Shown here: one piece after another, positions 29,459 through 50,099 of the stretch
Layout of the letters: every line of letters begins with the position of its first letter
Position numbering within the stretch: the first letter of the stretch is position 1
Source of the DNA: a virus
IMG/VR virus record: IMGVR_UViG_3300017741_002088
Span: 1-52,467 of that record
Strand: one strand, 5' to 3'
DNA: 52,467 nt
Made by a program: the position numbers and the translations under genes
Notes under the pieces: generated by a model
What the model was told of the DNA's origin: nothing
Databases searched by the model: none
Seen by the model: only the letters and a program-made list of their open reading frames with translations

Positions 29459-29835
29459 TGAATCCATTTGAGTATGTTAATGCGATTAATTTTAAGAAAC
29501 AAGATATCATGGTTGATGATCTTGCAGAAAAAGGTTATGCCGCATATATGATCAACAGATCTTTATCTTATTTCCCTGATACAGTTATGATGGCGAATGA
29601 GATGAATATCAACCACCATCTTGATAATCGTTTACAATTTGACTTTCTTATAAATATAGTACGAAAGAAAAAACGGTTCTCTAAATGGGCAAAACCTGAG
29701 AGCATAAGTGACGTGGAAGTTGTCAAGGAATATTATGGTTATAGTAATGAAAAAGCAAAAAATGCCTTGTCCCTTCTCACATCAGATCAGATTGATGAAT
29801 TAAAGAAGAAGGTTTTTAAAGGTGGAACAAAATAA
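29458..29835 (+). CDS. 62: gp62 clamp loader small subunit
   Basis: 125 residues from the ATG at 29458; an in-frame codon nine bases upstream would lie in the preceding small gene. MNPFEYVNAIN, YMINRSLSYFPDTVM, HLDNRLQFDFL and RKKKRFSKWAKPE match gp62 of marine T4-like phages. It pairs with gp44. Placement after gp44 and before regA is the classic order. A TATAAATA inside the gene is probably chance. Confidence 0.88.
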   Translation: MNPFEYVNAINFKKQDIMVDDLAEKGYAAYMINRSLSYFPDTVMMANEMNINHHLDNRLQFDFLINIVRKKKRFSKWAKPESISDVEVVKEYYGYSNEKAKNALSLLTSDQIDELKKKVFKGGTK

Positions 29836-30229
29836 AATTATTGAGTGGAACCCAAGTGCAATGCTTGAGATTACACTAAACGAACCAGATGATTTTCTAA
29901 AAGTTCGTGAGACACTAACACGTATCGGTGTTGCGTCCCGAAAAGACAAGAAGTTATACCAGTCCTGTCATATTCTACATAAGCAGGGAAGATATTTCAT
30001 TGTACATTTTAAAGAGTTATTTCTCTTAGATGGAAAGAAGTCTAATCTTGAAGAGAATGATATCGCACGTCGTAATACTATCGCCACTCTTATGAGTGAT
30101 TGGGGATTGATTAGCATAGAAGGTTCGACTACAGAACCGCTTGCACCAATGCGACAAATCAAAATTATTCCTTACAAAGAAAAGCAGGAATGGGAGTTAT
30201 GTCCCAAGTATAACATTGGTAATAAATGA
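29822..30229 (+). CDS. regA: RegA translational repressor
   Basis: 135 residues if started at GTG 29822; the ATG at 29861 (MLEITLNEPDDFLKV) would give 122 residues, matching the T4 start. The core KDKKLYQSCHILHKQGRYFI near residue 40 and the end CPKYNIGNK match T4 RegA closely. RegA binds the start regions of many early mRNAs and blocks translation. The first gene downstream overlaps its last bases. Confidence 0.92.
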   Translation: MEQNKIIEWNPSAMLEITLNEPDDFLKVRETLTRIGVASRKDKKLYQSCHILHKQGRYFIVHFKELFLLDGKKSNLEENDIARRNTIATLMSDWGLISIEGSTTEPLAPMRQIKIIPYKEKQEWELCPKYNIGNK

Positions 30230-30866
30230 TATCCCATTTATCGAACTTGATATCGATATAGATTATGACAAACTATTAAGTGAATGGAAAGCAGTAGAAG
30301 ATAAATATTCTTTTGCCAAATATAAAACCAAATATTGGCAGGTCAGAAGAAAATATGCTAAAGCATGGTCAGGAATCTCATTAGTAGGATCAGATGGTGA
30401 CTTATACTCTGATATGTACGAAGGTGATTCTTCTGCGGCATCTAAGACTGAACTGAGAGATGTTTGTCCATATTATTATGAACTGATATCAAAACTTGGA
30501 GGAGATGGTTTTAGAGCAAGGATTATGAGGATTTCACCAAAGGAATCCTTGGTATGGCATAGTCATGTACAAGAACACAGGCAACCCGAATGGCAACTAA
30601 CTTGCCAGATTCCGATTGTCATGCCAAATGATTTTGAATATTGTGTTTTACATAAAGATGAATTTAGATGGTGGAAAAGGTTTCATAGACCAGATTGGTT
30701 AAAGAGAGTCTGGCGAAAAAAACTTGATGTTGGTAAGGCATACATTTTTAATTCTTACCACTATCATAACGTGTACAACTACAGTAATGAATACAGGGTT
30801 ACTTTGATGTTGTACTTAGATTTAAGAGATCCAAAAGTTCGCGATTTGATTGAAAGAAGTTTATAA
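30216..30866 (+). CDS. 2OG-Fe(II) oxygenase-like (aspartyl hydroxylase family)
   Basis: About 216 residues from TTG at 30216; the frame is open back to 30141, so the start is uncertain and no good SD is seen. The C-terminal half has WHSHVQEHRQPEW (first metal His), then GKAYIFNSYHYHNVYN (second His) and EYRVTLMLYLD (2OG-binding Arg). This two-histidine layout is that of aspartyl/asparaginyl beta-hydroxylases. The substrate is unknown. The next gene starts at its stop (TAATG), which suggests a shared function with the riboflavin-kinase-like protein only by position. Confidence 0.55.
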   Translation: MVINDIPFIELDIDIDYDKLLSEWKAVEDKYSFAKYKTKYWQVRRKYAKAWSGISLVGSDGDLYSDMYEGDSSAASKTELRDVCPYYYELISKLGGDGFRARIMRISPKESLVWHSHVQEHRQPEWQLTCQIPIVMPNDFEYCVLHKDEFRWWKRFHRPDWLKRVWRKKLDVGKAYIFNSYHYHNVYNYSNEYRVTLMLYLDLRDPKVRDLIERSL

Positions 30867-31162
30867 TGGACTATTTACATGGCAATGTAAGAAAAGGAAT
30901 TCAGTTGTCTAGGCAACTGGGATTCCCCACAATAAATATTGACAACGATAGGTGGGGAAAAGATGAATATGGTGTTTATATTATAAATCATATTCAGTAT
31001 GGTAATGGGATTGCATTCGTTATGCCATCCCTGATTGAGATACATTTTTTCGAAAATGTGTTATTTGATGATGATACGATTGATGTCAAAGTTGTCCGCA
31101 AAGTTAATGCACCATCAACTGGCATCTTGCATCATTTTTATAAAGGTCTATACAATGTATAG
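30866..31162 (+). CDS. Riboflavin-kinase-like protein, minimal
   Basis: A 98-residue protein that aligns by eye with the C-terminal kinase domain of RibF. HGNVRKGIQLSRQLGFPTIN covers the glycine-rich turn and the Mg/ATP-binding PTxN motif (usually PTAN). YGVYII follows, then IEIHFFENVLF with the Glu in the place of the catalytic base (usual LEVH), and IDVKVVRKV for the last strand. The family domain is about 125-150 residues, so the C-terminal helices are mostly missing. If active it would convert riboflavin to FMN; the phage ThyX and possible oxidoreductases use flavin. Activity is uncertain. Confidence 0.6.
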   Translation: MDYLHGNVRKGIQLSRQLGFPTINIDNDRWGKDEYGVYIINHIQYGNGIAFVMPSLIEIHFFENVLFDDDTIDVKVVRKVNAPSTGILHHFYKGLYNV

Positions 31163-31586
31163 GATAACAGGGATATTTAAAAACAAGAAGGTCGTACAAG
31201 TGTTCTACAACATTTACGATGCTATTGAGTTTAAAGATATCGTTGATGCAAATTATCCTATAAAAGTGAAATTTGAAAAAGGAGTATATCCGATGAGAAC
31301 ATTTATTGTTGATATGTGGAATTCAGTAATGAACCACGAAGCAAACCCACTGAGTAAAATCCCAGATATGCAAACACGTCATGTTGTTATGCAATTACTA
31401 GCATGGATGTGGTGTATCATTTTTTCTACAAGTGTTGGTAGCATCACAGTTTTTGCTGCAAGCGCAGTTGCCCATGCTCTGCTCATTGCTGGCATTGTAA
31501 TAACTGTTGCCACCTTTGAAACTGCTAGACGCAAACCGCAATACTTTGGTGGATTAGGTCGTGGTAATGGCGGTGAGCACGAATAA
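31155..31586 (+). CDS. Two-helix membrane protein with possible internal start
   Basis: 143 residues from the ATG at 31155 (AAAGG upstream, overlapping the previous gene). A second ATG in frame at 31293 has a far better SD (AAGGAG, eight bases away) and would give a 97-residue protein with two membrane helices (VVMQLLAWMWCIIFSTSV and VAHALLIAGIVITVATF) and a basic, Gly-rich tail. The upstream 46 residues look coding (YRITGIFKNKKVVQVFYN). Two products from one frame are possible. Holin-like topology is compatible but not shown. Confidence 0.55.
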   Translation: MYRITGIFKNKKVVQVFYNIYDAIEFKDIVDANYPIKVKFEKGVYPMRTFIVDMWNSVMNHEANPLSKIPDMQTRHVVMQLLAWMWCIIFSTSVGSITVFAASAVAHALLIAGIVITVATFETARRKPQYFGGLGRGNGGEHE

Positions 31587-31625
31587 TAGTTACTAACTAT
31601 TGTCATTTAAGAATAAATGATTATA

Positions 31626-31631
31626 TATAAT
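31626..31631 (+). promoter_or_regulatory. -10 element before hsp20
   Basis: TATAAT in an AT-rich stretch. TTGTCA at 31600-31605 is a possible -35 but the spacer would be 20 bp, so the full promoter is uncertain. Transcription would start near 31638. Confidence 0.4.
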
Positions 31632-31632
31632 G

Positions 31633-31657
31633 TGAGACGCCGAATGATCGGGTCTCA
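31633..31657 (+). terminator. Hairpin before hsp20 (terminator or 5' UTR element)
   Basis: TGAGAC (31633-31638) and CCG pair with CGG and GTCTCA (31652-31657): nine base pairs with one bulged G and a six-base loop. It is followed by TTATTAAA, which is only weakly T-rich, so it could end the upstream operon or protect the hsp20 mRNA. Confidence 0.45.
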
Positions 31658-31689
31658 TTATTAAACCTTGCATAGTCATGGAGGTACAT

Positions 31690-32166
31690 ATGACTGGATT
31701 AGTTTACCCACGCAGTGGGTTCATCGGTTTCGACCACATCTTCGATCAACTTGAGAATATTCACAAGCATGCGAAGGATACCTATCCCCCACACAACGTA
31801 GTAAAAGACGATGAGTTTAAATTCTGTCTAGAACTAGCAGTGGCAGGATTCAAACAAGATCATATCGATATTGAAGTCAAAGACCACGTGTTAACGATCA
31901 AAGGTGATCGCCCACAACGTCGCGAACAAGATAGATATGTTCACAAAGGTATCAGTGCAAGAAACTGGAAAAAGTCATTTAGACTGTCCGAATACACGGA
32001 AGTCATCGGTGCTGATCTACAGGACGGAATATTGACTGTCGACTTAGAAGTCGTCCTTCCTAAAGAAAAGCGACCTCGTAAAATCACAATTGGTCAGAAC
32101 GAGGAAAACGAAAATGACAACAATAGCACTAAAGGGTTACACAACCCTCGCAACAATACTGGGTGA
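31690..32166 (+). CDS. Hsp20 small heat-shock protein
   Basis: 158 residues from the ATG at 31690 behind TGGAGGT. The alpha-crystallin domain spans about 36-135: FKFCLELAVAGFKQDHIDIEV, LTIKGDR and the terminal signature GADLQDGILTVDL (usual GxLxI/V). Such ATP-independent chaperones are conserved in marine T4-like phages, where they are thought to help scaffold or virion assembly. The C-terminus is Asn/Glu-rich. The 5' UTR could pair with the SD (see findings). Confidence 0.9.
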   Translation: MTGLVYPRSGFIGFDHIFDQLENIHKHAKDTYPPHNVVKDDEFKFCLELAVAGFKQDHIDIEVKDHVLTIKGDRPQRREQDRYVHKGISARNWKKSFRLSEYTEVIGADLQDGILTVDLEVVLPKEKRPRKITIGQNEENENDNNSTKGLHNPRNNTG

Positions 32167-32335: not shown

Positions 32336-32462
32336 ATTGTTTAAAATTCTTATGAAAAGAATGTCACAAGATCCAGTAGAACGTTATCTTGCTGAATCAG
32401 AAGACCTAGCAGACCTTGAAAATCGTATGAAATCATTACGTCATAAAGGAATCTGGGTATGA
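32328..32462 (+). CDS. DUF3563-like small protein, GTG start
   Basis: 44 residues starting at GTG, overlapping the previous stop by eight bases, and ending within the pseudoazurin start. The segment RYLAESEDLADLENRMKSLR matches the conserved core of the DUF3563 family (YLAEAxDLxDLExRM) found in proteobacteria and phages. Function unknown. It may help couple translation into the pseudoazurin gene. Confidence 0.6.
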   Translation: MIKLFKILMKRMSQDPVERYLAESEDLADLENRMKSLRHKGIWV

Positions 32463-32890
32463 TGAAAACATTCTTTGCTACTCTTTTAGGATTAGTTTTA
32501 ATTTCTAATATTGCTTATGGCAAAACAATAGAAGTTGAAATGTTGAACAAAGATAGTTCAGGTCGTAAAATGGTATTCAGTCAAGAGGTAGTTCGTGCCG
32601 ATACTGGTGATACAGTAACATGGGTGCCAACATCAAAGGGTCACAACGTAGAAATCGTTGCTGCACCTGATGGTTTTGCTATCCCAAAGAAAAGTAAAAA
32701 TGGCAAAGAAGTCAGTATTGATTTCACAGTGCCAGGAATTTACTATTACTGGTGTACACCGCATAAAGGCATGGGCATGATTGGTCTTGTTGTAGTTGGT
32801 AACGATACATCTAATAAAGATGATATCGCAAAGGCAAAGGCACTAGGCAAATCAAAGAAGAAACTCAAAGAACTTTTGGGTGACCTCTAA
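32459..32890 (+). CDS. Pseudoazurin-type blue copper protein
   Basis: 143 residues with a signal peptide (MMKTFFATLLGLVLISNIAY, cleavage near residue 21), so periplasmic. The mature part matches pseudoazurins: EVEMLNKDSSG, GDTVTWVPTSKGHNVE and WCTPHKGMGMIGLVVVG. All four type 1 copper ligands are present with pseudoazurin spacing: H62, C99, H102, M107. A C-terminal helix pair (KAKALGKSKKKLKELLGDL) is also a pseudoazurin feature. Pseudoazurins carry electrons to copper nitrite reductase, nitrous-oxide reductase or other periplasmic acceptors. SD AAAGGA. A host-derived auxiliary gene. Confidence 0.85.
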   Translation: MMKTFFATLLGLVLISNIAYGKTIEVEMLNKDSSGRKMVFSQEVVRADTGDTVTWVPTSKGHNVEIVAAPDGFAIPKKSKNGKEVSIDFTVPGIYYYWCTPHKGMGMIGLVVVGNDTSNKDDIAKAKALGKSKKKLKELLGDL

Positions 32891-38955: not shown

Positions 38956-40311
38956 ATGAGTAATTTCGAAGTAACAACAGTCGATGGCGTGAGAACTATA
39001 ACCGCCAAAAAGAAATTTGATTGTGAGCATCTACTCAATGAGTTTATGACTGACGATCATTATGACATCGTGATTGATGGCGATACAGATTTTTATGCTC
39101 CACCTATTGCAACAATTGATGGTGCATTCAATAATGAATCTAATCTAGGATTTCGTTTTCGTAAAAACGTTTTCACCAAAGAAGAAATGGAAGGTGCGTA
39201 TGAAGGTTTGTTAGATGCAGCGACATCAACAAACAACCGTGGCACTTCAACTGGTCAAATTGGTGTACAACGTCAAGGAAACCGCGATTGGGTTTATCCG
39301 TGGCAGTTTGATATTATGAAAATGATCCAGCATGGACGTCTTGATGATAAAACTCCACAGGATGTGATGGATGAATATGTTGCTAAGTGGGGTGATCTAG
39401 AGTTTCATTGGGATAAACGTGGTGCTCTTTGGCATCGTGGTAAAATCACCCAAGCAGGATATGACTATGATAATTTCTTTATGAATCAATTCGAATCAGG
39501 ATTGACTTCAGAAAAGATCGCTGAACTTAAAACGTTCATCCCAGATACTATGTACACCGCAAGTATCTACTCAGGAATCGCAGGTTTCTATGATCGTTAT
39601 CCTCGGATCCCATATGGTCGTGCAACTAACTTTACCGAATCAAATATGGATAAGTTTGCGAAAGCATACCCATATATGCGTAGACTGAATGCTTTGTTTG
39701 CTGAACTTGTTCCTCAACGATATGCTAAACAAAAGAAAGTCGCTGAGTCAATTGACAAACGATTCGTTGTTGCTGAGGATACTGCATTCTCAACTATTAC
39801 AGTCAACAAGAACTATCGTACGACTGCGCATCGAGATGGAGCAAACTATACTCCTGGATTCTCTAACCTGTCAACAGTGACTAAAGGTGACATCGGTTGG
39901 GAAGGTGGACTGTTTGTTCTTCCGGAATATCGTGTTGCTATCAACTTGCGTCCTGGTGATGCTCTATTGGTTGATAACGCTGGAATCATTCATGGTAATA
40001 CTGAAATGATCCCACCATCAGGTTTGGACATTGAAGATATGGAACGCATCTCTATGGTGTCATATATGCGTGACGGTATGCAGTCTCTTCGCTCAAAAGA
40101 ATATGAAGATGCTCGTCGCGAATATGTTACCGATCGTTCACGCAACAAAGATCACCCACTATGGCGTGAACGTTGGAATGGTGTGTCCGAAGGTATGTGG
40201 GCAGAAGATGAATGGTTAGAATTTCTTAATTCTAAAAACTTAACAGACGAAGATGGTGTAGTCGGGACTGCAAAAACTGATTCTCCCAACTCATTAGAGG
40301 AATTCTTCTAA
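38956..40311 (+). CDS. TET/JBP-like 2OG-Fe(II) dioxygenase
   Basis: 451 residues. The double-stranded beta-helix core is at about 278-372. It has VNKNYRTTAHRDGANYTPGF with the HxD metal pair H292/D294, then GGLFVLPEYRVAINLRPGD, a second metal His in IIHGNTEM (H346) and R364 in RISMVSYMR for 2-oxoglutarate. This spacing and the NKNYRT..HRD..GFSN block are those of TET/JBP enzymes, which hydroxylate 5-methylcytosine or thymine in DNA. The N-terminal 270 residues and acidic C-terminus are phage-specific. First gene of an operon of overlapping genes with base-modification-like neighbours. The target base is not known. Confidence 0.75.
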   Translation: MSNFEVTTVDGVRTITAKKKFDCEHLLNEFMTDDHYDIVIDGDTDFYAPPIATIDGAFNNESNLGFRFRKNVFTKEEMEGAYEGLLDAATSTNNRGTSTGQIGVQRQGNRDWVYPWQFDIMKMIQHGRLDDKTPQDVMDEYVAKWGDLEFHWDKRGALWHRGKITQAGYDYDNFFMNQFESGLTSEKIAELKTFIPDTMYTASIYSGIAGFYDRYPRIPYGRATNFTESNMDKFAKAYPYMRRLNALFAELVPQRYAKQKKVAESIDKRFVVAEDTAFSTITVNKNYRTTAHRDGANYTPGFSNLSTVTKGDIGWEGGLFVLPEYRVAINLRPGDALLVDNAGIIHGNTEMIPPSGLDIEDMERISMVSYMRDGMQSLRSKEYEDARREYVTDRSRNKDHPLWRERWNGVSEGMWAEDEWLEFLNSKNLTDEDGVVGTAKTDSPNSLEEFF

Positions 40312-40907
40312 TGTGCGCAGTCCTTGGGGTCTCGGGAAAGATCGACAGTCAAGTGATCCGTCGACTTTTTCTCGAGTCCCAGATTCGTGGTAGGCATGCC
40401 ACAGGAGTATCGTACTACAAGGAAGGCAAAGTTCATACGATAAAAGAACCTTTGCCTGCCGAGAAGTTTTTAGAGAAACACGACCCAAAAGATTGGTACG
40501 AGGGAGATGAAATTGTTATGATTGGACACTGTAGATATTCTACATCTGATCTTGAATTCAATCAACCCATCGCTAATGATCAATCAAGCATTGTACATAA
40601 CGGTGTGATCTCACAAGAGATGCCTGACCGTTGGAAACAACTGTACAATATTGATTGTGAAACTCGTAACGATACGGAACTTCTTTTCCATAGTAGTCCA
40701 GAAGATTGGCCAGATGCATCTATTGCTGCAGTTTTTCTTACAGGAAAAGAAATGACGTGGACTCGTAATGGAAAACGACCTTTATGGTTTACTTCTCTTG
40801 AAGAATGTGATATAATAACTTCTACAAATGACATTGCAGTTCGTGCTGGTTTATCGAACTCAGTCAAGACATATTATGACGGAAACGATCTACAAAATGA
40901 TTATTGA
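40311..40907 (+). CDS. Class II glutamine amidotransferase domain protein
   Basis: 198 residues beginning MCAVLG; Cys2 becomes the N-terminal nucleophile after Met removal, as in GATase type 2 enzymes. GRHATGVSYY, MIGHCRYST near residue 68 and IVHNGVIS near 98 are the usual Arg/Gly/Asn substrate-binding and oxyanion motifs. There is no synthetase domain, so ammonia would be passed to a partner. It begins at a TAATG join with the dioxygenase and is followed by a GNAT, suggesting that a nitrogen is added to a modified base. That is inference. Confidence 0.75.
   Translation: MCAVLGVSGKIDSQVIRRLFLESQIRGRHATGVSYYKEGKVHTIKEPLPAEKFLEKHDPKDWYEGDEIVMIGHCRYSTSDLEFNQPIANDQSSIVHNGVISQEMPDRWKQLYNIDCETRNDTELLFHSSPEDWPDASIAAVFLTGKEMTWTRNGKRPLWFTSLEECDIITSTNDIAVRAGLSNSVKTYYDGNDLQNDY
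40788..40817 (+). promoter_or_regulatory. Internal promoter before GNAT gene
   Basis: TTTACT at 40788-40793, 18-bp spacer, TATAAT at 40812-40817 preceded by TGTGA. It lies inside the amidotransferase gene, 80 bases before the GNAT ATG. Confidence 0.5.
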
Positions 40908-41553
40908 GAAAATTGATCAACAAGAACTTGAGGATACTCTTGCTCGTAAATTAGAAGAGAATGATGGCGCCAAACTAAACAACATGAATGGTTTGTATCA
41001 TTTGAAACAAACATGTTATGAGTGGGGCATGGAAAACAACTGGCAATCTCCCAGAGCGCAGCAGTGGGTAGCACGCAATGATGAAGGTACTATCATGGGC
41101 GGCACATTTATCACTGTCACCTCGCGCAAACCAGTTCATGTCACCTTTCGCCACATCTTTCTATTTGAAGAAGCAAGAGGTCATGGTGTCGCAGAGACGC
41201 TGTACAATTGGCGGTATCGCTGGGTCATTGAAAACACCCAGTGTAGACGTGTCAGATTGTTTGCGAATAAACCTGCGACACCATGGCATAATAAATGCGG
41301 AATGCGTTTCTTAGGGATGAATAAAGCAAAACAACCTTTTACATATCTGCCTTTATTCGATTGCCCATCTATGCGTGACTATGGAGCAAAACTAGATTCA
41401 ATTGGTCCACGAGCAGCAATGGATATGGTAGAACCTGAAGTCACTAAGCAAGTCGAAAAGATTGTGAGTAAAGGTGGTCGTTGGTACACTCAAGAAGAAT
41501 TCAAGAGTGAATGGGGATCTGAACTAGAAGAAAGGTTTGAACCCTTTGCTTGA
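40897..41553 (+). CDS. GNAT acetyltransferase-like protein
   Basis: 218 residues from the ATG at 40897, overlapping the amidotransferase end by 11 bases. The GNAT core has the acetyl-CoA loop EEARGHGVAETLYNWRY near residue 97 (R/QxxGxG/A form), followed by VRLFANKPATPWHNKCGMRF, typical of strand 5 and the final helix. The N-terminus (about 60 residues) and C-terminal tail are charged. It would transfer an acyl group, possibly to an amine on a modified base given the neighbours. Confidence 0.65.
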   Translation: MIIEKIDQQELEDTLARKLEENDGAKLNNMNGLYHLKQTCYEWGMENNWQSPRAQQWVARNDEGTIMGGTFITVTSRKPVHVTFRHIFLFEEARGHGVAETLYNWRYRWVIENTQCRRVRLFANKPATPWHNKCGMRFLGMNKAKQPFTYLPLFDCPSMRDYGAKLDSIGPRAAMDMVEPEVTKQVEKIVSKGGRWYTQEEFKSEWGSELEERFEPFA

Positions 41554-42538
41554 TCGTCGCGAATTGTTTGTTCGATGGTATGGTTGGTCTCTTGAATACA
41601 AAGATGTTGATCCTGCAGTTTGGTTGACCAATTACCTGCATAAACGATACGAACATAATGAAGAACAACGATACTGGTTGGCGTGGTTATATGGAAACAC
41701 ATATTACCTGCCAACAAGTTGGGTCTTGATGAATGAGTTTCCTGACTTTGAACTTGCGACTTATGATAGAATAAAAGACTGGAACGACCACAACTATACG
41801 CGACTTCGATATCAAACTGACACCAAATGGTCAAAAGGTCATTTGCCTGAGATGTTTAAATCCTATAAAGAGATGATCGGTAACAAGACCCAAAAGGAAT
41901 TCTTTGATGGGTTTGATGGTTTCGATGATCTCTTTGATCATGTAAAAACTAAACAATTCAAATTCGGTAGATACTCAACTTGGTTTTATTTGCAACATCT
42001 AGAGGGAACCTGCGGCATGCGCCACATCAACCCGAAGACTTTGTTGTTAAATGATCGTAGTGGAAGTCGAAGTCATCGAAATGGATTGTGTATGGCATTG
42101 AAAAAAGATGACTGGTATGATAAAAAATTAGACAAAAGTCAGATAGATATATTAGAAGGAATGGGTGCTGATATCTTAACCGAGATGTCAGATCGTTTTC
42201 CGAAGCATAAGAATGAAGTGAATGCATTTACTATGGAAACTGCACTTTGTTCTTTTAAGAAGATCTTTCGTAAACATCACGGAAGATATCTCGGATACTA
42301 TCTTGATCGCCAAGCAGAGGAGATCACTAAAGTGTCTAAAGATGGTTGGAACGGTATTGAGTGGAATGTACTTTGGCAAGCAAGGTCAGAATCACTCGAT
42401 AAAAGATTAACATCTAAGGGTGGCATTATCAAAGACAAATTTGATACATTTGTCGATACTGGATCACTAGATAGGATAGAATGGATGTTCACAGATATCC
42501 AGAAAAGTCCTTCACCTTTAGACAATTTTATGATATAA
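41537..42538 (+). CDS. Thymine pyrophosphorylase-like protein (aGPT-PPlase2 type)
   Basis: About 333 residues from TTG at 41537; a TTG nine bases later is better spaced from AAAGG. The pattern EEQRYWLAWLYGNTYYLPTS near residue 42, LRYQTDTKWSKGHLPEMF near 91, SGSRSHRNGLCMALKKDDW near 176 and METALCSFKKIFR near 231 fits the family named alpha-glutamyl/putrescinyl thymine pyrophosphorylase clade 2. This family is linked to replacing the 5-hydroxymethyl of phosphorylated hmU in phage DNA. I recognise it from memory, without a search. It is flanked by GNAT and a P-loop kinase, the partners expected for that pathway. Confidence 0.55.
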   Translation: MNPLLDRRELFVRWYGWSLEYKDVDPAVWLTNYLHKRYEHNEEQRYWLAWLYGNTYYLPTSWVLMNEFPDFELATYDRIKDWNDHNYTRLRYQTDTKWSKGHLPEMFKSYKEMIGNKTQKEFFDGFDGFDDLFDHVKTKQFKFGRYSTWFYLQHLEGTCGMRHINPKTLLLNDRSGSRSHRNGLCMALKKDDWYDKKLDKSQIDILEGMGADILTEMSDRFPKHKNEVNAFTMETALCSFKKIFRKHHGRYLGYYLDRQAEEITKVSKDGWNGIEWNVLWQARSESLDKRLTSKGGIIKDKFDTFVDTGSLDRIEWMFTDIQKSPSPLDNFMI

Positions 42539-42539
42539 T
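42511..42539 (+). promoter_or_regulatory. Promoter for the P-loop kinase gene
   Basis: TTCACC at 42511-42516, 17-bp spacer, TATAAT at 42534-42539 with TGA before it, overlapping the end of the preceding gene. The predicted RNA start, 42546, is the A of the kinase ATG. Confidence 0.55.
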
Positions 42540-42545
42540 GATACT

Positions 42546-43094
42546 ATGAATAAATTACTCGCAATAATTGGTGCTCCAGGAACTGGTAAGACAACCCTCG
42601 TTCGTGAGTGGATGAAGTCACGAAAATGGTCAAAGGATAAACCAGTTGATCTTCTCGACACTCATGTATCGGACGATATTCGGTTGCTTGGTAAATATGA
42701 GCATGATTCTCTCTTCAGCGGTACAGATAAACTGTCTATGGCAGTACAACCGAAAGCAGTAGAATATCTAGACAACCCATCCCCTGTAACTATATTTGAA
42801 GGCGATCGACTGACTTCGATTAAATTCTTTGAAGCAGCGCAGTCAAAAGGATTTGAAATTAAAATCATTCAACTCACTGTTCCCGATGAAGTTAGAGAAC
42901 AACGTTACAAAGAACGTGGTTCAGAACAAAACCCAACTTGGTTGAATGGCAGATTGACAAAAGTTAAAAATGTTTCAAATGCCTTTTCCGGAAACCCTCT
43001 GTTCGATGAACCGAGCATAGTAGAGGAGTGTGAGCATAAAACTCCTGAAGATACAAAATCAATCATAACAATCATTGAGGATTTTATAAAATGA
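42546..43094 (+). CDS. P-loop kinase, candidate hmU DNA kinase
   Basis: 182 residues. Walker A is GAPGTGKTT at 9-17. Next come LLGKYEHDSLFSGTDKLSMA near residue 48, then TIFEGDRL near 81, and an LID-like basic stretch EQRYKERGSEQNPTWLNGR near 118. The FSGTDxLSMAVQP block is what I recall from phage 5-hydroxymethyluracil DNA kinases, which phosphorylate the base in the polymer before substitution. A nucleotide kinase role is the alternative. No SD precedes the ATG and the promoter suggests a leaderless mRNA. ATGA overlap with the next gene. Confidence 0.6.
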   Translation: MNKLLAIIGAPGTGKTTLVREWMKSRKWSKDKPVDLLDTHVSDDIRLLGKYEHDSLFSGTDKLSMAVQPKAVEYLDNPSPVTIFEGDRLTSIKFFEAAQSKGFEIKIIQLTVPDEVREQRYKERGSEQNPTWLNGRLTKVKNVSNAFSGNPLFDEPSIVEECEHKTPEDTKSIITIIEDFIK

Positions 43095-46466: not shown

Positions 46467-46898
46467 ATGAAAATCCTCATCTTTGGGTTGCCAGGAGCAG
46501 GTAAAACTTATTTGTCAGAGCGTTTGCAAAAACATTTTAAGTGCGCTTGGTATAATGGTGATGAAATTAGAAAGATGGCAGACGACTGGGAATTCAGTCC
46601 TGAAGGTCGTCTGAGGCAAGCATCACGGATGAGAAACCTTGCTAATTTCGAAAAAGATTCTGGTCGGTGGGTGCTATGTGATTTCATATGCCCCACCAAT
46701 CATTATCGAGATTTATTTGATGCTGATATTTCTATATGGGTAGACACAATAAGAGAGGGAAGATTTGATGATACAAACAAAATGTTTGAGTTCCCTTCTA
46801 TGGTTGACTATAAAATAGCAAAGTTTTTATCTGATGAAGAAATAAAAAAACTAGCAAATATGATTATAAATGAAAGTGAAGAAGATGTCAGCATTTGA
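46467..46898 (+). CDS. Adenylylsulfate-kinase-like P-loop kinase
   Basis: 143 residues. FGLPGAGKTYLSERL (6-20) is the Walker A of APS-kinase-like proteins (GLxGAGKT), followed by YNGDEIRKMADDWEFSPEG near 29, in the place of the DGD..R motif, and CDFICPT near 71. True APS kinases phosphorylate adenylylsulfate; phage homologues may phosphorylate other small molecules. It overlaps the nucleotidyltransferase-like gene by 14 bases, so the two may act in one pathway. Confidence 0.65.
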   Translation: MKILIFGLPGAGKTYLSERLQKHFKCAWYNGDEIRKMADDWEFSPEGRLRQASRMRNLANFEKDSGRWVLCDFICPTNHYRDLFDADISIWVDTIREGRFDDTNKMFEFPSMVDYKIAKFLSDEEIKKLANMIINESEEDVSI

Positions 46899-47301
46899 TT
46901 ATTTAAACCCAACGTCCCTGATGATTGGTAGATACCAACCATGGCATGAAGGTCATTTAGAACTGTTTCAACGTGCGTACGAATTAGCAGGTCAGGTATT
47001 GATTCTCGTTCGGGAAGTTCCTGAATCACGAGAAGCGAATAGTCGCGTTCCAGGGCAAGATGATAATCCCTTTTCACCTTCAGAAGTTTTCGCTATGATC
47101 ACACAAAATTTATCAGAAAATGGGTTTACTTTTGATGAAGATTACGTTATAATGAGTGCTCCTAATATCGTTGACATTAGTTATGGACGCGATGTTGGAT
47201 ACACATTCACTGAGCATGATCTCGGTGATCTTAATAAAATTAGTGCAACTGACATCAGGGCACAGATGAGAGCAGAGGGTAAACTTGCAAACAAATCTTG
47301 A
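46885..47301 (+). CDS. Nucleotidyltransferase-like protein (HxGH)
   Basis: 138 residues from the ATG at 46885; an ATG 15 bases upstream is also possible. MIGRYQPWHEGHLELFQRA near residue 13 contains the HxGH motif and ISATDIRAQMRAEGK near 120 is the ISxTxIR motif of the NMNAT/cytidylyltransferase superfamily. It would couple a phosphorylated small molecule to a nucleotide. The substrate is unknown; nicotinamide mononucleotide and sugar or polyol phosphates are options. Confidence 0.7.
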   Translation: MSAFDYLNPTSLMIGRYQPWHEGHLELFQRAYELAGQVLILVREVPESREANSRVPGQDDNPFSPSEVFAMITQNLSENGFTFDEDYVIMSAPNIVDISYGRDVGYTFTEHDLGDLNKISATDIRAQMRAEGKLANKS

Positions 47302-49303: not shown

Positions 49304-49437
49304 TGAATAAAATTTTGAGAAGACTTGGATTGAAAGACGACTATGGTTATTGCGATATGTCCATTGTTGGGTTTATTGTTATATGGTCGTTTTTTCTTTA
49401 TGGTGTTTATATTGCGATCGGAGACTTAATTAAATGA
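49303..49437 (+). CDS. Small one-helix membrane protein
   Basis: 44 residues, joined to both neighbours by overlaps (TAATG before, ATGA with thyX after), which supports it as coding. A basic N-terminus (NKILRRLGLKDDYGYC) is followed by one membrane helix (MSIVGFIVIWSFFLYGVYIA). Function unknown. Confidence 0.6.
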   Translation: MNKILRRLGLKDDYGYCDMSIVGFIVIWSFFLYGVYIAIGDLIK

Positions 49438-50099
49438 ATGTTAGATTAATCAGTTATTCACAAACAGCGGAGAACCTACATGTCGGTGAAGATATCCAAG
49501 AACTCATTGCGTATTGTGCCCGTGTCTCGAACCCCTCGAACCAAACTAACCAAGAAACGTCCGAACGTTTATTATCCTATCTCGCAAAACACAAGCACTG
49601 GTCGCCTTTCGAGATGGTGTCTGCTTGCTTAGAGATTGAAACGACTCGTGATATTGCTCGTCAAATCCTTAGGCATCGTTCGTTTTCATTTCAGGAGTTT
49701 AGTCAGAGATATGCTAATCCTGTAGAAGATTTAGATTATGTTATGAGGGAAGCGCGACTACAAGATACGAAAAATCGTCAAAACAGTATTGTTACTGATG
49801 ATGCTGATTTACAACTAGAATGGTATAAGCAACAAGCAGAAGTTCAACTTGCCTCTAAAAAAGCATATCAATGGGCGATTGAAAATGGTATTGCTAAAGA
49901 GCAAGCACGTGCGGTGTTGCCCGAAGGTATGATGGGATCACGACTTTATATGAATGGAACCATCAGGTCTTGGATTCATTTTATTGAATTGCGCAGTGCT
50001 AATGGCACACAAAAAGAATGTCAGGATGTTGCCATTGCTTGCGCAAAAGCGATTACTGAGATATTCCCTCTTGCTCAAAAGTTCTTGGAGACAGAATAA
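49434..50099 (+). CDS. thyX: ThyX flavin-dependent thymidylate synthase
   Basis: 221 residues. The ThyX motif RHRSFSFQEFSQRYA begins at R80 (usual RHRxxSxNExSxRY, here with Gln for Asn). SPFEMVSACLEIETTRDIAR precedes it and ARAVLPEGMMGSRLYMNGTIRSW-type dUMP-binding residues follow near 160-180. It makes dTMP from dUMP using FAD, NADPH and methylene-folate. The flavin need fits the riboflavin-kinase-like gene at 30866. Confidence 0.93.
   Translation: MNVRLISYSQTAENLHVGEDIQELIAYCARVSNPSNQTNQETSERLLSYLAKHKHWSPFEMVSACLEIETTRDIARQILRHRSFSFQEFSQRYANPVEDLDYVMREARLQDTKNRQNSIVTDDADLQLEWYKQQAEVQLASKKAYQWAIENGIAKEQARAVLPEGMMGSRLYMNGTIRSWIHFIELRSANGTQKECQDVAIACAKAITEIFPLAQKFLETE

What the first reader, a model, noticed from the sequence alone, without database searches (positions are those of the whole stretch)
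30866..31162. Very small riboflavin-kinase-like protein
At 98 residues it keeps the flavokinase PTxN motif, the glycine-rich turn and a Glu at the catalytic-base position, but lacks most C-terminal helices. Phage riboflavin kinases are not, to my knowledge, commonly described. It would make FMN for flavoenzymes in the infected cell (ThyX uses FAD) or may have a new nucleotide-binding role.
Basis: partly seen in the sequence, partly recalled or inferred. Interest (0 to 1): 0.7.

Follow-up and report, generated by a model that had tools for sequence, protein, structure and literature searches.

The report
Shortened phage riboflavin-kinase-like protein
A marine T4-like phage carries a real but very short relative of the vitamin-B2 kinase, which keeps the phosphate-transfer residues, has lost much of the flavin pocket, and is encoded directly behind a hydroxylase gene that may be its working partner.

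Summary
ORF 30866-31162 (98 aa) matches Pfam Flavokinase above the curated cut-off and keeps G-x-V-x-x-G, R-x-L-G-F-P-T-I-N, G-V-Y and a Glu at the catalytic-base position. It lacks the LYG loop, the NIGxRPTF loop, the R-x-E motif and nearly all of the C-terminal helix. An 80% identical ORF (L103) sits in the same place in a second phage-like contig, and dN/dS of about 0.2 shows that it is a maintained gene. Otherwise it is extremely rare: no other close relative was found in IMG/VR or INPHARED. An alignment-guided AlphaFold model ranks riboflavin kinases first in the PDB, but its alignment contained true kinases; a single-sequence model was inconclusive. FMN production for ThyX is possible but weakly supported, because flavin-ring and adenine contacts are missing while phosphate/Mg and base residues remain. 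The start codon overlaps the stop of a 2OG-Fe(II) Asp/Asn-hydroxylase gene in both phages. In a structure search, three giant-virus proteins of 271-296 aa also matched, two of them named Asp/Asn hydroxylases, suggesting domain fusions (sequences not seen). I favour a riboflavin-kinase-fold partner of that hydroxylase, probably a phosphotransferase with a changed substrate. New variant of a known kind.

The parts
30866..31162 (+). 98-aa riboflavin-kinase-like protein; motifs G6-x-V8-x-x-G11, R16-x-L-G-F-P21-T22-I-N24, G36-V-Y38, P54, E58
   Evidence: PF01687 E 3.6e-7; 80% identical orthologue L103:3001-3297; dN/dS 0.19; 17 of 37 strongly conserved RFK columns kept
30219..30866 (+). Asp/Asn beta-hydroxylase-like 2OG-Fe(II) oxygenase gene (PF05118); its stop overlaps the start of the kinase-like gene by one base (TAATG); listed ORF opens at 30141, start at 30219 inferred from relatives
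   Evidence: PF05118 E 1.3e-9; alignment of ten phage relatives; identical TAATG junction in L103
31155..31586 (+). next ORF (ATG 31155 overlaps the end of the kinase-like gene), unknown function; absent from L103, where hsp20 follows directly
   Evidence: no Pfam family; matches in other T4-like loci lie elsewhere, mostly after hsp20
29822..30229 (+). regA translation repressor, left border of the variable region
   Evidence: PF01818 E 5.4e-44
31678..32166 (+). hsp20, right border of the variable region
   Evidence: PF00011 E 7.7e-19
49434..50099 (+).
   Evidence: Thy1 E 2.6e-43; thyX equivalog above cut-off

Best explanation
It is a maintained, minimal member of the riboflavin-kinase fold that works as the partner of the 2OG-Fe(II) hydroxylase encoded directly in front of it. 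Shown: homology of the N-terminal half, conserved Thr22/Asn24 and Glu58, loss of the flavin-ring and adenine-ring elements, purifying selection, and the one-base stop/start overlap with the hydroxylase in two phages. Inferred: Thr22 and Asn24 still hold Mg-ATP phosphates and Glu58 still activates a hydroxyl. Inferred further: because the flavin pocket is cut away, the hydroxyl acceptor is not necessarily riboflavin, and an attractive acceptor is the hydroxyl that the partner enzyme installs (hydroxylate, then phosphorylate) or a cofactor or substrate shared with it. The gene is cargo of a variable region between regA and hsp20.
For: Homology. Residues kept and lost: with roles from PMC2573891. 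Selection. TAATG overlap in both phages; same gene order. Structure search against BFVD: matches with probability 1.00 in Indivirus A0A1V0SE75 (296 aa, named Asp/Asn beta-hydroxylase, 29% identity), Tupanvirus A0A6N1NRH0 (286 aa, named Asp/Asn/Pro hydroxylase) and mimivirus L888 (271 aa, no functional name), beside Fadolivirus and Indivirus 'riboflavin kinase'. The sizes suit a roughly 100-aa kinase-like plus a roughly 200-aa hydroxylase domain (inference). Variable region.
Against: The giant-virus proteins were seen only as names, lengths and scores; which domain was matched was not shown. In phages the pairing is known only in these two related loci: none of the 35 hydroxylase loci and none of 30 Bacteroidota PF05118 loci contains a kinase-like ORF, so the hydroxylase clearly works without it elsewhere. 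The C-terminal half adds nothing to the profile score. The substrate is a guess. The good model used an alignment with four true riboflavin kinase modules.
Confidence: 0.4

Rival explanations
1. A true, minimal riboflavin kinase: it makes FMN in the infected cell, which host RibF turns into FAD for ThyX and other flavoenzymes.
For: PTIN and Glu kept; PTIN occurs in RFKs presumed active on genomic grounds (passage of PMC2972280); G-V-Y kept; ThyX in the window; the tail HHFYKGL aligns with the start of the last helix and is nearly invariant between the two phages.
Against: Loss of the NIGxRPTF loop, LYG and R-x-E, and of most of the last helix with its Asp. A plant module with a short C-terminus and no last helix, which also lacks PTAN, is inactive. 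L103 has GAY instead of GVY. A bacterial host normally has its own RibF (61 of 61 Bacteroidota genomes; the host of this phage is unknown).
Confidence: 0.25
2. A non-catalytic module: the barrel binds a nucleotide, flavin or protein, for instance as a targeting part of the hydroxylase, or as a decoy that disturbs host RibF assembly.
For: Both substrate-ring pockets are reduced; the C-half is weakly conserved towards the kinases; L148, another phage protein, has Ser where the Glu should be (by eye) and an insertion inside the domain.
Against: Thr, Asn and Glu are all conserved in both copies, which a pure binding module need not keep; only two sequences are available.
Confidence: 0.26
3. A decaying fragment of a captured ribF gene.
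For: Short, rare, and no full-length version in 50 related contigs.
Against: dN/dS 0.19, intact frame in two phages, conserved tail.
Confidence: 0.07

Closest known systems
RFK module of bacterial bifunctional RibF / FAD synthetase (C. ammoniagenes, T. maritima, S. pneumoniae)
   Same: N-terminal half, PTxN, GxY, Glu; predicted barrel
   Different: 98 aa alone, no FMN adenylyltransferase domain; LYG, NIGxRPTF, R-x-E and most of the last helix missing
Monofunctional eukaryotic riboflavin kinase (S. pombe 1n06, human 1nb0)
   Same: Top PDB matches of the alignment-guided model; stand-alone domain
   Different: 142-155 residue chains in those entries against 98 here
Giant-virus riboflavin-kinase-like proteins (Yasminevirus A0A5K0UA81, Fadolivirus A0A7D3R2S5) and the presumed hydroxylase fusions (Indivirus A0A1V0SE75, Tupanvirus A0A6N1NRH0, mimivirus L888)
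   Same: Best structural matches of all, TM 0.55-0.69 by query length
   Different: Viruses of eukaryotes; presumed fusion instead of neighbouring genes; sequences not seen here
Phage LR756502.1 (642 kb) stand-alone flavokinase-like ORF, L105:3992-4636
   Same: Phage, no adenylyltransferase domain in the same ORF, PF01687 80 bits
   Different: 214 aa, keeps Glu, the IYD loop and the C-terminal part, has GFATAN instead of GFPTAN

Membership tests
Riboflavin kinase (PF01687, EC 2.7.1.26) | Sequence match above the curated Pfam cut-off | tested here: met
   30.9 bits against 19.6; L103 28.1 bits
Riboflavin kinase (PF01687, EC 2.7.1.26) | G-[FY]-P-T-[ALIV]-N motif (ATP phosphates, Mg) | tested here: met
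   GFPTIN 19-24 in both sequences; motif as given in PMC2573891
Riboflavin kinase (PF01687, EC 2.7.1.26) | Invariant catalytic-base Glu in [LVI]-E-x-[HFYN] | tested here: met
   IEIH (AEIH in L103) 57-60; shuffle support is moderate, 2 of 300
Riboflavin kinase (PF01687, EC 2.7.1.26) | G-x-psi-P-T-[FVI] loop at the floor of the flavin pocket | tested here: not met
   FVMPS in its place
Riboflavin kinase (PF01687, EC 2.7.1.26) | [DNE]-x-Y-[GDN] adenine loop | tested here: not met
   Tyr is a gap in the alignment
Riboflavin kinase (PF01687, EC 2.7.1.26) | R-x-E plus last helix with conserved Leu and Asp over the flavin | tested here: not met
   N-x-P; protein ends before the Asp
Riboflavin kinase (PF01687, EC 2.7.1.26) | Six-stranded riboflavin-kinase barrel | tested here: inconclusive
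   Model with RFK-containing alignment: pLDDT 69, riboflavin kinases rank first, best Z 8.8; single-sequence model pLDDT 52 did not find them
Riboflavin kinase (PF01687, EC 2.7.1.26) | Phosphorylation of riboflavin | not testable with these tools
   needs an assay
Bifunctional RibF / FAD synthetase | N-terminal FMN adenylyltransferase domain | tested here: not met
   98-aa ORF with the flavokinase match only; the window's own nucleotidyltransferase 46870-47301 is NadM-like, not RibF-like

The most novel reading that the evidence does not exclude
A two-part modification enzyme shared by phages and giant viruses: a 2OG-Fe(II) hydroxylase installs a hydroxyl group and a stripped-down riboflavin-kinase barrel phosphorylates it, so that the fold has become a non-flavin kinase.
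Probability: 0.15. Interest if true: 0.8.

Novelty: new variant of a known kind. Interest (0 to 1): 0.48.

Why it matters
If it is active, it would be a very small riboflavin-kinase-fold enzyme and would show which parts of the barrel suffice for phosphate transfer. If it serves the hydroxylase, it would give the riboflavin-kinase fold a second job and a first handle on the function of a hydroxylase family seen in many marine T4-like phage contigs. The pair can be tested directly: two small proteins from one operon.

Tried and rejected
Chance or false ORF: rejected (orthologue, dN/dS, open frame). Close relatives in IMG/VR by three routes: none (a pattern for RxLGFPTIN gave 2 stretches, whose ORFs are unrelated). 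INPHARED tblastn with P0001 gave one 32-residue match at E 2, read as chance; with L103, none. With E. coli RFK: 34 records; those I read as host ribF or chance from the table were not examined one by one, and only LR756502.1 was followed to its ORF (two more were fetched but not read). RFK alignment scan of IMG/VR: 11 stretches, 6 loci. Five of these (L143-L147) look like ordinary bacterial RibF (L143 and L147 cut by a contig end); L148 is the exception.

Split RibF idea: the 46870-47301 nucleotidyltransferase is closest to NMN adenylyltransferase, so rejected. Hydroxylase relatives in INPHARED: none. Promoter/terminator scan of 30100-31800: near the shuffle means for promoters (9 against 7.2) and terminators (1 against 0.7). 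The first RFK alignment had wrongly picked domains and was replaced; its numbers are not used. Foldseek with the single-sequence model gave no riboflavin kinase in the 50 rows shown, best E 0.6. Literature on phage or giant-virus riboflavin kinases: listings; passages read.

Full report
What is there. The window is a 52,467-base IMG/VR virus record of a T4-like phage: clamp loader A subunit, regA, UvsX, DnaB-like helicase and ThyX are among its genes. No tRNA was found. At 30866-31162 (+) lies an ATG-started ORF of 98 codons. Its A of ATG is the last base of the TAA stop of the gene before it.

Is it a riboflavin-kinase relative? Pfam Flavokinase PF01687 is its only family, E 3.6e-7, 30.9 bits against a cut-off of 19.6, over residues 4-46. 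NCBIfam RibF models match the same stretch weakly and below their cut-offs. PDB phmmer gives T. maritima RibF first, at E 0.16 only; with a three-sequence profile that includes E. coli RibF it becomes 1.2e-7 and covers residues 4-87, but E. coli RibF in the profile helps this. PHROGs has no match.

An orthologue. The one genome-contig scan found L103, 80% identical over 97 residues, on a 5.3-kb contig filed under a Bacteroidia MAG. Its genes are those of the phage, in the same order: clamp loader, glutaredoxin-like, clamp loader A, regA, hydroxylase, kinase-like ORF, then hsp20. The MAG has its own full-length RibF elsewhere. Whether the MAG organism is the host or the contig is mis-binned is unknown. 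Nucleotide differences fall 19/3/25 over codon positions, dN 0.108, dS 0.554, dN/dS 0.19. L103 matches PF01687 over residues 4-76, so past the Glu.

Which residues stay. Against 31 RFK domains of Bacteroidota genomes plus E. coli (32 sequences), 17 of 37 columns conserved at 80% or more are kept: G6, V8, G11, R16, G19, F20, P21, T22, N24, K32, G36, V37, Y38, G46, P54, E58, F67. Not kept are the second Gly of the turn (Ser15), the N-I-G-x-R-P-T loop, the Tyr of LYG, the Arg and Glu of R-x-E, and the last helix with Gln and Asp. PMC2573891 (passages) assigns Thr and Asn of PTxN to phosphate and metal and the Glu to base catalysis, with alanine at the Glu abolishing activity. It assigns the Asp/Tyr loop to adenine, the GxxPTF region to the flavin pocket, and the Arg-Asp salt bridge to fixing the last helix over it. 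So the reactive centre is kept and both ring pockets are reduced. PMC2972280 (passages) reports PTIN among natural variants presumed active on genomic grounds, and plant RibF modules that are 40-60 residues shorter, lack PTAN and the last helix, and show no kinase activity.

How strong is the Glu assignment? Profile comparison gives 92-93% probability, E 3e-7 to 7e-7, with E58 on the Glu. 0 of 300 full shuffles reach the score. But 292 of 300 sequences with real N-half and shuffled C-half also reach it, and for the C-half alone 22 of 300 shuffles reach the score, 24 put a Glu there, 2 do both. BLAST with the RibF of L143 aligns IEIHFF with IEIHFF and, from L103, runs to the C-terminus with HHFYKGLENI on EHKFKSLEEL.

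Structure. Single-sequence AlphaFold2 gave pLDDT 52 and no riboflavin kinase in the 50 Foldseek rows shown. With an alignment of P0001, L103 and four RFK modules from viral-contig loci, pLDDT is 69, pTM 0.60, six strands and a last helix. Foldseek against the PDB then lists riboflavin kinases or FAD synthetases in the first 14 rows, best E 6.8e-3, none below 0.001. VIA-align puts them in the first 12 rows, best Z 8.8 for S. pneumoniae 3op1, with V-ATPase and helicase barrels at Z 6-6.5. Since the alignment held true kinases, this is consistency, not independent proof.

The partner. The gene in front is a 2OG-Fe(II) hydroxylase of the Asp/Asn family (PF05118, E 1.3e-9) with WHSH and YHYHN motifs conserved in ten phage relatives. 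In BFVD the model's best matches are Yasminevirus A0A5K0UA81 (5.8e-5) and Fadolivirus 'riboflavin kinase' (6e-4). Then come Indivirus A0A1V0SE75, named Aspartyl/asparaginyl beta-hydroxylase (296 aa, 29% identity, 2.1e-3), mimivirus L888 (271 aa, 2.6e-3), Indivirus 'riboflavin kinase', an unnamed protein, and Tupanvirus A0A6N1NRH0, named Asp/Asn/Pro hydroxylase (286 aa, 9.4e-3), all with probability 1.00. The simplest reading is that giant viruses carry the same two domains in one chain. I could not fetch those proteins, so this remains a lead. Against it, no kinase-like ORF turned up in the other loci scanned (162 loci plus the window, some contigs repeated, hits only in the window and L103); these include all 35 and the 30 Bacteroidota PF05118 loci given out of the 43 matches. 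In two contigs, L102 and L170, the hydroxylase is beside or near ThyX, so a flavin link is not excluded.

Region. In 76 of 84 regA-bearing loci, hsp20 follows regA at 65 to 4198 bases (median 497); 5 of the 76 hold the hydroxylase and 1, L103, the kinase-like gene. It is rare cargo of a variable region. PF01687 was absent from 50 related phage contigs searched whole (50 of 100 fetched). Third-position identity between window and L103 is 0.74 for the kinase-like gene against 0.57 for regA and 0.54 for the hydroxylase, 0.84 in the first half of the gene, which suggests recent exchange of this piece.

Other phage flavokinase-like proteins. LR756502.1 (642 kb) has a 214-aa ORF with PF01687 at 80 bits and GFATAN. 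L148, beside a terminase gene, has the domain in two stretches around an insertion and Ser in place of Glu by eye. In print, passages mention a RibF in Burkholderia phage phiE067 (PMC7266877), riboflavin kinase in the Shark Bay virome annotation (PMC6008428) and an archaeal-type one in Baikal sponge viromes (PMC8876492).

Judgement. I place the protein in the riboflavin-kinase superfamily by homology and do not call it a riboflavin kinase, since three defining elements were tested and not met.

Noticed in passing
window 31631-31695: ROSE-like RNA thermometer in front of the phage hsp20 gene: Rfam RF02523 ROSE_3, 31.1 bits (gathering 43), E 6.8e-4. The hairpin and an ACCTTGC element recur upstream of hsp20 in related contigs; stem letters change on both sides between window and L103. 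A literature search gave no phage case in its listing.
   Followed up: partly
L148:149-832: Phage protein next to a terminase gene with PF01687 in two stretches around an insertion of about 100 residues (ParB-like by eye only, no Pfam match), Ser at the Glu position. No relatives found.
   Followed up: partly
L105:3992-4636 (LR756502.1): Stand-alone 214-aa flavokinase-like ORF in a 642-kb phage record, GFATAN instead of GFPTAN, Glu kept.
   Followed up: partly
window 38956-43094: Tet_JBP dioxygenase followed by glutamine amidotransferase-like, GNAT and P-loop nucleotide kinase-like genes, which looks like a DNA hypermodification cluster (function recalled, not tested).
   Followed up: no
window 46467-47301: Kinase-like ORF overlapping a short NadM-like nucleotidyltransferase ORF.
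   Followed up: partly
window 32459-32890: Plastocyanin/azurin-like copper protein with a signal-like N-terminus (by eye) in a phage (PF00127 E 1.5e-16).
   Followed up: no
L168, L169, L171, L173, L174, L176: Relatives of the hydroxylase occur in tandem (L168, L169, L171, L173, by eye) and beside radical SAM/B12-type genes (L173 by Pfam; L171, L174, L176 by eye).
   Followed up: no
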